A stretch of DNA of 64,000 nucleotides from Actinoalloteichus fjordicus (lineage in GTDB: Bacteria > Actinomycetota > Actinomycetes > Mycobacteriales > Pseudonocardiaceae), in the NCBI RefSeq assembly GCF_001941625.1, contig NZ_CP016076.1:682001-746000 (forward strand), given 5' to 3'. Every line of letters starts with the position of its first letter. The stretch's first letter is position 1. Below the pieces are notes generated by a model, which worked only from the letters and a program-made list of their open reading frames with translations, was not told the DNA's origin and made no database searches. The position numbers and the translations under genes were made by a program. Positions 52,120 to 56,129 of the stretch are shown piece after piece.

Positions 52120-52231
52120 CGTCATCCGATCGGCTCGCCGAGGTGGCCGCTGCTCGGTCTGGCGAGGTGATGTCTGCTCGGGCCGCCGAGGTGTCCTCGA
52201 CTTGGCCGACCGAGGCGACAGCACGGATGCC
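52116..52231. repeat. 24-bp tandem repeats, left copy
   Basis: Four to five degenerate 24-bp units start at the rpfB stop: 52116-52139, 52140-52163, 52164-52187, 52188-52211 and a partial unit to 52231. Units begin GAGGTG and carry CTCGG- and GCC-rich ends, for example GAGGTGATGTCTGCTCGGGC plus CGCC. A homologous but diverged array lies at 55122-55237. Confidence 0.75.
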
Positions 52232-52244
52232 GTAGCCTCCGCGC

Positions 52245-52403
52245 GTGAGCGAATCGCAGAAATCGGCCGGATCGAGCGCCCTGCTCGGTCCGGCCGATGT
52301 TCGTCGGCTGGCCGATGAACGGGACGTCCGCCTGAGGAAGAAGCTCGGACAGAACTTCGTGCACGACCCCATGGCGTCGAAGGCGGTATGGCCGCTTCGA
52401 TAG
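52245..52403 (+). pseudogene. ksgA 5'-end fragment (truncated duplicate)
   Basis: GTG 52245 opens [42 protein letters not shown], then leaves the ksgA frame and stops at TAG 52401. The first 42 codons match the intact ksgA at 55251 with scattered changes (ADERDVRLR against AAELDVRPT). The shared DNA includes the GATGCCGTAGCCTCCGCGC leader. The break lies near 52371. Confidence 0.88.
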
Positions 52404-52570
52404 GCGGCCGTACTGGTGTTCCCCTCCCGGTCGAGTCGTCCAGCTCTGCCGGAACGGTGCGATCGCTGCCCCAGCCGTACTCGCACGACGCGAACCGCGG
52501 ATCACGGTGTGCCTGGTCCAGTGCGGCCGTGCGGGATCGCCGAAGAACTTCGCCGCGTGGTGACGCTATG

Positions 52571-53692
52571 TCAGGTGCCGAGGTGTCCGAGTGCGGGGCC
52601 GTCCGGGCTGTCGAGCCACACGCGTTGCTCGTCGGCGGTGACGGTGAGGCCGAGGCGGTCCCAAGCGGGTCGATCGTGGGCGTTCCAGATCTGAGTGGTG
52701 CGCTCGACTGCGTCCCACAGCCGGGTGGGTCCCGCCTGCGTGACCGCGTGTGGGTGGGCGTCGGTGGTATCGATCTCGGCCCATGATCCGTCGCGGGCGG
52801 ACAAGCGGGCGGCGACCGGGCGGTAGTCGTCGTCGAGGAGGTAGCCGACGTCGATGGGTGTACCGAGGGCCAGGCACGTCAGAAACCAGGGGACGGGCTG
52901 TTCCCAGGCGACGGCGGAGAGGTTGGTCATGCTCCGCACAGGTGTGCCGCCTGCGCGATCGGCGGCCGGCGGTGGGTCCGGCTGGTCGGGGTGGCGCATG
53001 TCCATGAAGCACGCTCGGCCGGCGTCGAACCTGCCTTCGGAGATATCGCCCCTTTTGCGCAGCAGCACGAGGTTTCCTGCAGCGGGGTTGACCTTGATGT
53101 CGGTGAGGATCGCGCCGCCGTCGGCGAGCTGGTGGAACCACGCGGGCGGGATGTGCGACACGGCAACGGTGGAGATGATCCGGTCGAACGGCCCACGGTC
53201 GGGGATGCCGTCGATGCCGTCTCCGGTCCACAAGTGGGGCAGGTAGCCCAGCGACGCGAGTCGGCGCTGCGCGGCATCCACGTAGTCGACGTCGATGCTG
53301 GACACGTACTGGTCGCCGAGGCGGGCGCACAGGAGCGCGGTGTTGTAGCCGGTGCCGGTGCCGATCTCCAGCACGTTGAGCCCGTCGTGCACATCGAGGA
53401 GTTCGAGCATCCGGGTCATCAGGCCGGGCATCGACGAGGATGACACGCCGCGGCCGTCGTCGACATCGGTGACCAGCGCGACGTTTGAGTAGACCATGTC
53501 GAATGCCTCGGGGTGGTCGACAACGATCTTGTTCCAGTCGCCAGTCTTGCTGTCCTGTTGGAAGTACTCCGGCACGAACACGTGGCGCGGGGTCGCCCGG
53601 AAGGCGGTCTGCCACCGCGGCGAGGACAGCTTGCCTTTCGTGGTGAGCTCGTCGGCCAGCCGGGAGAGCAGCAGTTCCCAGTCGACGCTCAT
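52571..53692 (-). CDS. PIMT-like methyltransferase of graspetide (TgmC/ThfM type)
   Basis: A 373-residue protein related to protein-L-isoaspartate O-methyltransferase: FRATPRHVFVPEYFQQD, then the SAM site NVLEIGTGTGYNTALLCA with GTGTGY, VSSIDVD and a long C-terminal extension. In fuscimiditide-type pathways this enzyme methylates an Asp side chain of the ester-cyclised peptide, which then closes to an aspartimide. Its ATG at 53692 overlaps the ATP-grasp stop (ATGA), so it is the third gene of the operon. It is less GC-extreme than the core genes. Confidence 0.9.
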   Translation of the reverse strand: MSVDWELLLSRLADELTTKGKLSSPRWQTAFRATPRHVFVPEYFQQDSKTGDWNKIVVDHPEAFDMVYSNVALVTDVDDGRGVSSSSMPGLMTRMLELLDVHDGLNVLEIGTGTGYNTALLCARLGDQYVSSIDVDYVDAAQRRLASLGYLPHLWTGDGIDGIPDRGPFDRIISTVAVSHIPPAWFHQLADGGAILTDIKVNPAAGNLVLLRKRGDISEGRFDAGRACFMDMRHPDQPDPPPAADRAGGTPVRSMTNLSAVAWEQPVPWFLTCLALGTPIDVGYLLDDDYRPVAARLSARDGSWAEIDTTDAHPHAVTQAGPTRLWDAVERTTQIWNAHDRPAWDRLGLTVTADEQRVWLDSPDGPALGHLGT

Positions 53693-54639
53693 GTCGTCCC
53701 CTTCGCGAGCAGGTCGGCGAGTTGGTCGGTGATCGGCGCGCCCACGACGTCTTCCAGCCATCCGTACTGTCCTCCGGCGTTTACCTCCAGGAAAGACCAC
53801 CCTTCGGGGCCGATCACGAAGTCGAGCGCGCCGTAGACCACGCCCAGGTCGTTCATCAGCCTGCGGACTCCGGTGGCCACGTCCCCGGGCGGCTCGATCA
53901 ACTCGTAGCGCAGGTTGTCGTAGTCGGTTCGCCAGTCGACGTAGCCGGTGGCGCTGTCGGTGTGGATCGCGACGGCGGTCAGTTTGTCGCCCACGACGAC
54001 TATGCGCGCCTCGTGCGATTTCGACACCCACCGTTGGAACAGGTGCGTGGTCGTCTCGATGCCGCTCAGGTCGGCCAGGTCAGCGGCGTCCAGCACGCGC
54101 GTGTAGGCGAGTTTGCGCCCGCCGCTCTCCACAATTGAGTTCGAGCCGAGCACCTTCGTGACCGTCGTGCCGCGCCCGGCAAACTGGCGGACCGACATGG
54201 GATCGTTGGTGATCATCGTGTCTGCGACCCGCAGACCGCAACGTTGGGCGAGCGCGAGCTGCACGGGCTTGTAGGCGGCGTCGGCCAGCCGCGCCGGGTG
54301 GTTGATCCACAACACCGGCAGCGAGGTCAACACCCCACCGAGTCCGTACTTGGCTTCGAGATTGGCGAATCCACGTTCGGCTGCAGTCATCGCGTTCGGG
54401 AACGTGTACGCCTTCGGGGATCGGAACCACGCGGCGGTGATGCCGTCGAGGTCGATCGTGCGGTACGGGGTGCGCAGCTGCCCCGACCACTTGCCGCCGG
54501 TCAGCTCAGCCGACACGCTGAGCTGACCGGGGAACCACGCGGTATCGACGCGATGCACGACGGTGTCCCGCTCCTGAAAGGCACACACCATCGCATCCGC
54601 GCTCGGATCGCGTTCGTCCGCGAGGATCAGAACGGACAT
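53689..54639 (-). CDS. ATP-grasp ligase, graspetide maturase (TgmB type)
   Basis: A 316-residue ATP-grasp enzyme: MSVLILADERDPSADAM start, AAWFRSPKAYTFPNAMTAAERGFANLEAKYGLGGVL pre-grasp region (key AAWFRSPKAY), RWVSKSHEARIVVVGDKLTAVAI, and the metal and ATP site FLEVNAGGQYGWLE with E-x-N. It should form ester or amide links between Ser/Thr/Lys and Asp/Glu side chains of the precursor. It overlaps the precursor gene by one base and the methyltransferase by four. Confidence 0.93.
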   Translation of the reverse strand: MSVLILADERDPSADAMVCAFQERDTVVHRVDTAWFPGQLSVSAELTGGKWSGQLRTPYRTIDLDGITAAWFRSPKAYTFPNAMTAAERGFANLEAKYGLGGVLTSLPVLWINHPARLADAAYKPVQLALAQRCGLRVADTMITNDPMSVRQFAGRGTTVTKVLGSNSIVESGGRKLAYTRVLDAADLADLSGIETTTHLFQRWVSKSHEARIVVVGDKLTAVAIHTDSATGYVDWRTDYDNLRYELIEPPGDVATGVRRLMNDLGVVYGALDFVIGPEGWSFLEVNAGGQYGWLEDVVGAPITDQLADLLAKGTT

Positions 54640-54986
54640 CAGACCGGGAATGGCTCGTCGGGCACGAAGTCGTAGCTGAAGTCCTCCGAGGGGCCTTCGT
54701 CGCCATCAAGGTTCGTCTTGTTCTTCACCGTGGGTGGACCGGCCTCGATCAACGGACGCCCCGAGGCATCCACCGACATCTGCGAGCGGTGGTCGTAGCG
54801 AACCGTCCGCGCGCCCCCTGCCGTGGTCGGCGGCTGAGGTTCCATTCCACGCAGCGCCCACGGGCGCACTCCGGCGTGCGATGGTTCGTCGTCGCTGGTC
54901 CGGTCGAACGGCGCGCCCAGCGGGAACTGTGCGCTGTGCGAGGCCACCGGGTCAGCGGCGAACCGGTCACGAACTGCTGTCGACAT
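54639..54986 (-). CDS. graspetide precursor peptide (TgmA-like)
   Basis: A 115-residue precursor. The leader has FPLGAPFDRTSDDE and the family motif RPWALRGMEP (residues 41-50). The probable core is the last 35 residues. It has Thr86 and Thr91, Asp94-Gly95-Asp96-Glu97, Ser100, an acidic DF-x-x-DFVPDEPFPV tail and several Ser/Thr and Asp/Glu pairs suited to ester rings. Asp94-Gly95 is the natural aspartimide site. ATG 54986 has GAAGGGA upstream. It is the first gene of the three-gene operon. Confidence 0.88.
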   Translation of the reverse strand: MSTAVRDRFAADPVASHSAQFPLGAPFDRTSDDEPSHAGVRPWALRGMEPQPPTTAGGARTVRYDHRSQMSVDASGRPLIEAGPPTVKNKTNLDGDEGPSEDFSYDFVPDEPFPV

Positions 54987-55121
54987 CTGATTCCCTTCAC
55001 GTCACGTAATCACGTTGTCGTTCTCGGATCTCGGGCGTCGGGACCCACAGACGCCAGCCAGCCGATGGTCAACTCCTCTTGGTGCTTACTCGACACTTAC
55101 ACGATCCGTATCCAAATGAGT

Positions 55122-55237
55122 ACGGACTGCACCTCTCGGCTTGACGGGGTGATGTCGGCTTGGCCTGCCGGGTTGCTGCTGGCTTGGCCTGGCGGGGTGA
55201 CATCGGCTCGGCTCGGCGGGGTCGCCTCGGTGATGCC
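55122..55237. repeat. 24-bp tandem repeats, right copy
   Basis: Units at 55146-55169, 55170-55193, 55194-55217 and a partial to 55237, with a weaker one before. Each begins GGGGTG or GGGTTG and contains GGCTTGGCC- or GGCTCGGCT-type centres. It is homologous in unit length, phase and position to the array after rpfB, but diverged by many bases. Confidence 0.75.
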
Positions 55238-55250
55238 GTAGCCTCCGCGC

Positions 55251-56129
55251 GTGAGTGAATCGCAGAAGTCGGCCGGGTCGAGCGCGCTGCTCGGTCCGGC
55301 CGATGTTCGTCGGCTGGCTGCCGAGTTGGACGTCCGACCCACCAAGAAGCTCGGCCAGAACTTCGTGCACGACCCGAACACCGTGCGGCGCATCGTCTGG
55401 GTGGCCGGGGTCGGCGCCGAGGACGTCGTGCTGGAGGTCGGCCCGGGCCTCGGCTCGCTCACCCTGGCGCTGCTCCCGCACGCCCGCGAGGTGGTGGCAG
55501 TGGAGATCGATCCGGTACTGGCGGAACGGCTGCCCGCGACGGTGGCCGAGCGCGCCCCCACCCTGGCCGAGAAGCTGCGGGTGGTGACGGCCGACGCGAT
55601 GCGCGTCGGGGCCGAGGAGCTCGGGGAGCCGACAGCGCTGGTCGCGAACCTGCCCTACAACGTCGCGGTGCCCGTGGTGCTACACCTGCTGGAGCGGCTG
55701 CCGAGCCTGCGCACTGGATTGGTGATGGTGCAGGCCGAGGTGGCCGACCGGCTGGCCGCCCAGCCCGGCAGCCGGGTCTACGGGGTGCCGAGTGTGAAGG
55801 CGGCCTGGTACGCGGAGGTTCGGCGTGCCGCGAACGTGCCGCGCGGCGTCTTCTGGCCAATGCCCAATGTGGACTCCGGCCTGGTCGCGTTTCGCCGCAG
55901 GGAGACGCCGCCCTCGGAGGCGTCGCGCACCGAGGTCTTCGCGGTGATCGACGCGGCGTTCTCGCAGCGGCGCAAGACGATGCGCTCGGCGTTGGCGGGC
56001 TGGGCCGGGTCGCCTGCCGAGGCGGAACGACTGCTGCGCGCGGCGGGCGTCGACCCGTCGATCCGGGGCGAGCAGCTCACGGTCACCCAGTTCGCCGCGA
56101 TCGCGGCGGCTCGGTTGGCGGGTGAATGA
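55251..56129 (+). CDS. ksgA: 16S rRNA dimethyladenosine transferase KsgA/RsmA
   Basis: A 292-residue SAM enzyme that dimethylates A1518 and A1519 of 16S rRNA. Motifs: [21 protein letters not shown] (key [10 protein letters not shown]), [41 protein letters not shown] with catalytic NLPYN, and [23 protein letters not shown] 55251. It is intact and functional in appearance, but its 5' end and leader are duplicated 3 kb upstream. The usual next gene, ispE, is absent; an island follows instead. Confidence 0.96.

What the first reader, a model, noticed from the sequence alone, without database searches (positions are those of the whole stretch)
52571..54986. Aspartimidylated-graspetide (fuscimiditide-like) RiPP cassette
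Three coupled minus-strand genes encode a precursor with RPWALRGMEP leader motif and an Asp94-Gly95 core site, an ATP-grasp ligase (FLEVNAGGQYGWLE) and a PIMT-like methyltransferase (EIGTGTGY). Seen: order, overlaps and motifs. Known: fuscimiditide-type graspetides are built by exactly this trio, with the methyltransferase driving aspartimide formation. Inferred: a side-chain-esterified peptide with an imide at Asp94. No protease or exporter gene is seen beside it, so maturation after ring closure is open.
Basis: partly seen in the sequence, partly recalled or inferred. Interest (0 to 1): 0.85.

Follow-up and report, generated by a model that had tools for sequence, protein, structure and literature searches.

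The report
Graspimiditide (cross-linked, aspartimide-bearing peptide) gene cassette
Three adjoining genes in an actinobacterium encode a small peptide and the two enzymes expected to tie it into rings and put a reactive imide on it; this is a further member of a peptide class already known from more than a thousand gene clusters, here dropped in between two ordinary chromosomal genes.

Summary
A (115 aa, GRASP_targ), B (316 aa, TgmB-type ATP-grasp ligase) and M (373 aa, PIMT-like methyltransferase) are coupled on the minus strand of an actinobacterial chromosome. The predicted core, TVKNKTNLDGDEGPSEDFSYDFVPDEPFPV, recurs almost unchanged in three other genera; Asp94-Gly95, Asp102, Asp106 and two hydroxyl positions are widely conserved. 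Best reading: a group 13 graspetide (graspimiditide). B makes nested Thr-Asp esters, M then methylates Asp94 and an aspartimide or isoaspartate forms. No chemistry was tested. It is not a fuscimiditide orthologue: spacing differs and there is a third acid, Asp110. Published surveys count over 1,300 such clusters, so this is a new member of a known kind. The missing protease gene is not odd: none is known for any graspimiditide. Similar duplications flank 11 of 43 such cassettes, but also 4 of 14 unrelated insertions, so they are not graspetide-specific.

The parts
54639..54986 (-). A: precursor peptide, 115 aa; leader about 1-85 with RPWAL recognition motif (41-45); core about 86-115 with T86, T91, D94-G95, D102, D106, D110
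   Evidence: TIGR04186 GRASP_targ 40.6 bits, cut-off 25; homologues in L016-L018 and others; residue numbers checked
53689..54639 (-). B: ATP-grasp graspetide synthetase (TgmB type), 316 aa
   Evidence: TIGR04187 353.6 bits, cut-off 350; MvdD pre-ATP-grasp domain; solved relatives 9bou, 5ig9, 5ig8, 7mgv (CdnC), 7m4s (AMdnB), 7drm
52571..53692 (-). M: PIMT-like L-aspartyl O-methyltransferase with C-terminal domain, 373 aa
   Evidence: TIGR04188 335.2 bits (below cut-off 380) and PCMT; model mean pLDDT 91.5; match to Thermotoga maritima PIMT 1dl5 from model residue 8 to 366
54987..55133 (-). probable promoter/5' region of the cassette, conserved in L016
   Evidence: DNA homology with L016 runs from 52558 to 55133; alignment; no sigma-70 consensus match
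52130..52369 (+). left copy of duplicated host segment: repeats upstream of rsmA plus the first 125 nt of an rsmA copy that breaks off
   Evidence: 78% identical over 241 columns to 55136-55375; a 144-nt stretch that includes the rsmA part is 128/144 identical
55136..55375 (+). right copy of the duplicated segment, continuing into intact rsmA (55251-56129)
   Evidence: rsmA by Pfam PF00398

Best explanation
A complete, horizontally acquired graspimiditide cassette. Shown by sequence: precursor, ATP-grasp ligase and PIMT-like methyltransferase in one coupled unit, with conserved leader motif and core. Inferred from characterised relatives: B binds the RPWAL leader motif, phosphorylates core Asp side chains and lets Thr hydroxyls close two nested esters, most simply Thr91-Asp102 (12-residue inner ring, the same size as Thr7-Asp18 of fuscimiditide) and Thr86-Asp106. 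M then recognises the cross-linked hairpin and methylates Asp94; attack by the Gly95 amide gives an aspartimide that may persist or open mainly to isoaspartate. A protease encoded elsewhere removes the leader. Asp110 is either a free acid or part of a third linkage. The confidence given is for the pathway; for the exact pairs I would say about 0.55.
For: Family hits for all three genes. 36 of 39 ATP-grasp relatives whose N-terminus was matched have a motif of the form RP[WFYL]x[LMIV] (R or H first) in an ORF just upstream (no chance control was made, and in L019, L032 and L042 that ORF lacks the core). In 20 DG-type cores picked by hand: Asp94 19/20 (Asn in L031), Gly95 20/20, Asp102 20/20, Asp106 20/20, Asp110 15/15 of those long enough, S/T at 86 in 19/20, S/T at 91 in 17/20 (the other three have T one place upstream). 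Window against Tamaricihabitans L017: core dN 0.014, dS 0.60 (30/31 residues identical), leader 0.193/0.855, B 0.11/0.80, M 0.20/0.95; all comparisons with L016, L017 and L018 have dN below dS. The M model has the extra C-terminal domain and aligns with 304 residues of 1dl5. B followed by M on the same strand in each of L016-L028, 13 of 13. Thr/Asp rings, order of action and leader motif of the class: PMC12291112 and PMC13003496 (passages), PMC13001092 (parts 1-3 of 5).
Against: No mass or structure data; expression unknown. M lies below the TIGR04188 cut-off, though so do all 12 strong matches in this genome, and only 30 of 120 family genomes have any match over it. The upstream hydroxyl spacing (x4) and Asp110 do not match fuscimiditide, so ring pairing is a guess. 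In M the WXXXGXP motif reads WNAHDRP (Asp for Gly), and WNTHDRP in L016. The core is not clearly more constrained than B in every comparison: dN/dS about 0.17 against 0.19 with L016 and 0.25 against 0.21 with L018, on only 31 codons. Five of the eight sister loci in this genome look broken, so such cassettes decay often.
Confidence: 0.9

Rival explanations
1. Same pathway, different rings: three links using Thr86, Thr91 and a further nucleophile (Lys88, Lys90, or a Ser of the core) with Asp110 as a third acid, so a three-ring stem or a lactam-bearing product.
For: Asp110 is conserved in all 15 long cores of the 20 picked; the number of esters in characterised graspimiditides runs from two to five (PMC13001092). 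Lys88 and Lys90 lie in the stem and are kept in L016, L017, L018 and L032.
Against: Five shorter relatives (L023, L024, L026, L027, L053) end at the Asp106 equivalent. The Lys88/Lys90 pair is not kept outside the TVKNKT clade among the 20. The four characterised graspimiditides are described with Thr-Asp esters (PMC13001092).
Confidence: 0.3
2. The final product carries isoaspartate, not aspartimide, at residue 94: M drives Asp to isoAsp through a short-lived imide.
For: SsfM in Streptomyces sp. F-3 gives an isoAsp/Asp mixture (PMC10787088, parts 1-3 of 5); fuscimiditide hydrolyses to 95% isoAsp (PMC13001092).
Against: Three of four characterised graspimiditides were purified with the aspartimide (PMC13001092). 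Sequence cannot decide.
Confidence: 0.4
3. M is a general protein-repair PIMT that happens to sit beside a graspetide pair.
For: PCMT domain; all nine solved relatives found by sequence are named PIMTs.
Against: Best family is TIGR04188 (335 bits), far above the best PIMT model (102 bits); extra C-terminal domain; start overlaps the stop of B; B followed by M in 13 of 13 of L016-L028.
Confidence: 0.03
4. The cassette is a dead or decaying remnant.
For: A broken copy of rsmA lies beside it, and five of eight sister loci in the genome look broken.
Against: All three frames are open and coupled; dN is well below dS in all three genes against L016, L017 and L018; intact relatives in L016, L017, L018.
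Confidence: 0.06

Closest known systems
Fuscimiditide (ThfA/ThfB/ThfM, Thermobifida fusca)
   Same: Same trio; leader with RPF/W motif; 10-residue loop between inner Thr and Asp; D-x3-D acid spacing; aspartimide Asp in the loop
   Different: T-x4-T instead of T-x3-T upstream; a third Asp (D110) and a tail; longer precursor (115 aa against 67 + 22). Residue numbers of fuscimiditide come from passages of PMC12291112/PMC13003496; its full sequence was not fetched or aligned
Amycolimiditide, albusimiditide, SsfA(BM)
   Same: Graspetides with a PIMT-like methyltransferase; Asp in a loop above nested esters
   Different: Four esters in amycolimiditide and five postulated in SsfA(BM); here two are best supported. 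Sequences not compared (description in PMC13001092)
NCBIfam TIGR04186/TIGR04187/TIGR04188 (tgm genes)
   Same: All three window genes match; plasmid relatives of B are annotated tgmB
   Different: M is under the curated cut-off of TIGR04188
Imiditides/pamtides
   Same: Same methyltransferase superfamily (PMC13001092, PMC10787088)
   Different: Those lack an ATP-grasp enzyme; here B is present

Membership tests
Graspetide (group 13 / graspimiditide) | Precursor with conserved RPF(G)-type leader motif | tested here: met
   RPWAL at 41-45, Trp for Phe; GRASP_targ 40.6 bits; such a motif upstream of 36 of 39 related ATP-grasps
Graspetide (group 13 / graspimiditide) | Adjacent ATP-grasp ligase of the TgmB/MvdD type | tested here: met
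   TIGR04187 just over cut-off; PF21068
Graspetide (group 13 / graspimiditide) | PIMT homologue with extra C-terminal domain | tested here: met
[quoted passage not shown]
   WNAHDRP at 336-342: Trp and Pro kept, Gly is Asp here and in L016
Graspetide (group 13 / graspimiditide) | Core with conserved Ser/Thr and Asp/Glu flanking an Asp-X loop | tested here: met
   20 hand-picked cores; 15-row precursor alignment with D94 and G95 invariant
Graspetide (group 13 / graspimiditide) | Side-chain esters and aspartimide actually formed | not testable with these tools
   needs mass spectrometry
NCBIfam TIGR04188 | Score at or over 380 bits | tested here: not met
   335.2 bits; none of the matches in the own genome reaches it
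Fuscimiditide subgroup proper | T-x3-T-x10-D-x3-D core ending at the second Asp | tested here: not met
   window core is T-x4-T-x10-D-x3-D-x3-D plus tail (residue check); fuscimiditide numbering from PMC12291112
Leader subgroups of group 13 | Leader-motif subgroup | not tested
   the subgroup motifs were not available to me

The most novel reading that the evidence does not exclude
In this family of actinobacteria, graspimiditide genes travel as a bare unit of about 2.6 kb (5' region-A-B-M) with no recombinase of its own, arriving by a homology-assisted process that leaves a copy of a neighbouring gene's end on the far side; the same process would bring in other accessory genes, and would explain how one genome gathers nine such loci and lets about half of them rot.
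Probability: 0.2. Interest if true: 0.5.

Novelty: new member of a known kind. Interest (0 to 1): 0.25.

Why it matters
It adds a clade of graspimiditides with a nearly fixed core shared across several genera, useful for asking what the product does: against L017 the core is kept (30/31) while the leader drifts (60/84), which points to a definite target. The two-hydroxyl, three-acid arrangement is a simple test of how the ligase chooses partners. The insertion, with an empty site in two genus mates, is a clean case for studying how such cassettes move.

Tried and rejected
Idea that flanking direct repeats are a special mobility mark of graspetide cassettes: they flank 11 of 43 B+M cassettes against 2 of 40 hand-chosen control positions (Fisher one-sided p 0.0097; strict form 8 of 43 against 1 of 40, p 0.019). 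The 43 include the loci that suggested the idea. In the later, independent batch alone it was 2 of 11 with B, and 2 of 29 methyltransferase loci without B, against 2 of 40 (4 of 40 control regions held such a pair at one or more of 13 tried positions). The decisive control went against it: 4 of 14 non-cassette insertions between G000 and G001 over about 204 kb are flanked too, by similar but not identical criteria. So it marks insertion in this genus, not graspetides. In one search, 38 of 81 loci were left out: no B+M pair or under 1.5 kb of flank.

Core as clearly the most constrained part of the cassette: true against L017, barely so against L016, not so against L018.

Precursor against solved structures: no convincing relative, alone (two hits with E 0.24 and 0.3 to a replication protein) or as a profile (none), so fuscimiditide could not be aligned. 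Promoter and terminator consensus scan: nothing. The NCBIfam hit of A to a DNA polymerase III subunit (E 0.07) is taken as chance. The second-look structure list mostly tests model residues 1-237; the C-terminal domain claim rests on 1dl5, with rmsd 6.2, and that domain was not searched by itself. Foldseek TM-scores to 1dl5 are 0.57/0.66.

Not tested: a tree of B against species; the published leader subgroups; papers of the class that are not in the held library.

Full report
What is there. Three minus-strand genes run A (54639-54986), B (53689-54639), M (52571-53692), coupled by overlapping stop and start codons. A matches GRASP_targ (TIGR04186), B the ATP-grasp ribosomal peptide maturase family TIGR04187 and the MvdD pre-ATP-grasp domain, M the methyltransferase family TIGR04188 (under its cut-off) and PCMT. 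Solved relatives of B are ATP-grasp ligases including CdnC and AMdnB; those of M are PIMTs, best 1dl5.

Host and neighbours. The window lies at 682001-746000 of a single 7.12 Mb contig. 18 of the 23 named loci found with B are Pseudonocardiales by their titles (family assignments partly recalled); the others are three Salinispora, one labelled Melainabacteria and one unnamed MAG. The host family, Pseudonocardiaceae, is inferred from this; the genus may be Actinoalloteichus, but that is recalled from genome sizes and was not tested. Upstream on the plus strand lie metG, tatD and an rpf-like transglycosylase gene, downstream rsmA and a 213-aa ORF without Pfam match. No protease or transporter was recognised among these five neighbours; genes farther off were not scanned.

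The core. Near-identical cores occur in an Actinophytocola MAG (L016), Tamaricihabitans (L017) and Gandjariella (L032, precursor and ligase frames broken), a looser one in another Actinophytocola MAG (L018, 24/31), and the same pattern in Amycolatopsis, Prauserella, Pseudonocardia, Kutzneria and others. In 20 cores chosen by hand, Asp102, Asp106 and Gly95 are in all, Asp94 in 19 (Asn in L031), Asp110 in the 15 long ones, S/T at 86 in 19, S/T at 91 in 17. More distant precursors seen (for example L033-L035, L039, L043, L045, L052, L116, L117, L121) have other cores and were not in that count, nor were L054, L086, L100, L101, L104, L109 and L111. Against L017 the core has dN 0.014 and dS 0.60, lower in ratio than leader, B or M; against L016 (0.042/0.247) and L018 (0.161/0.649) it is only about as constrained as B.

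Mechanism. From the class literature: the ligase is recruited by a leader whose key part is the RPFG tetrapeptide (PMC13003496, passages), makes Thr-Asp esters, and the methyltransferase acts only on the cross-linked core (PMC13001092, parts 1-3 of 5). Fuscimiditide pairs Thr7-Asp18 and Thr3-Asp22 (PMC12291112, passages). Window T91-D102 gives the same 12-residue inner ring with Asp94 in its loop; T86-D106 is the likely outer ester, with one extra residue on the Thr side. These pairings are inferred. M has a predicted fold with the extra C-terminal domain (mean pLDDT 91.5), aligned to T. maritima PIMT from residue 8 to 366.

Abundance. TIGR04188 matches at E 1e-60 or better occur in 83 of 120 sampled family genomes; the own genome has 12, second to one with 15, where at most 15 candidates a genome were scored. 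Nine of the 12 lie beside a TIGR04187 match. Of these nine, four look intact (window, L039, L041, L043); in L040 and L042 leader and core of the precursor lie in different frames, and in L044, L045 and L046 the ligase is interrupted or truncated. Sequencing error was not excluded. 60 plasmid records hold a relative of B, each below 60% identity; 14 of the 15 listed carry the annotation tgmB.

Known or new. Two surveys count 1,326 and 1,432 such clusters (PMC13001092; PMC10787088), and another noted that 504 of 958 precursors in its largest cluster fit none of the published core motifs (PMC8939145, passages); whether the window's precursor falls in that cluster was not tested. I made no literature search for this core sequence itself. 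New member of a known kind.

Insertion. Both held genus mates have rpf and rsmA about 60 bp or less apart, without a cassette (L057, L058). In the window 240 bp beginning just after rpf repeat the rsmA upstream region and the first 125 bases of rsmA, then break off; the intact rsmA follows the cassette. Over 144 nt the left copy is 133 identical to G001 and 128 to the right copy; the right copy is 131 identical to G001, too close to say which copy is native. Homology to L016 runs from 52558 to 55133, ending three bases from the right copy. Similar duplications flank 11 of 43 B+M cassettes, but 4 of 14 other insertions too, so this looks like a general trait of insertion in this genus.

Noticed in passing
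window 52130-52369 and 55136-55375: Duplicated rsmA 5' end and upstream repeats flank the cassette; the rpf-rsmA interval is empty in both held genus mates.
   Followed up: yes
L046:2761-3101/5257-5597, L054:3113-3242/6342-6471, L031:4388-4468/6784-6864, L093:5238-5608/8668-9036: Other graspetide cassettes flanked by long direct repeats, 95-98% identical in these four; in L031 and L046 one copy lies in a neighbouring gene.
   Followed up: partly
G001 828134-829425 and 846497-848089; G001 710453-713241; G000 744660-745640: Non-graspetide insertions flanked by direct repeats, hinting at a general mode of gene gain in this genus.
   Followed up: partly
L040, L042, L044, L045, L046 (own genome): Five sister graspetide loci look broken in the precursor or the ligase, a sign of fast gain and loss.
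   Followed up: partly
L031:4668-5001: Precursor with Asn-Gly where the other 19 listed cores have Asp-Gly; its ligase matches only to residue 212.
   Followed up: no
L047, L048, L049 (own genome): Three PIMT-like methyltransferase genes without a neighbouring graspetide ligase, possibly imiditide/pamtide or other clusters.
   Followed up: no
L032 (Gandjariella thermophila): Close relative of the window cassette with a stop in the leader and the ligase split over frames.
   Followed up: no
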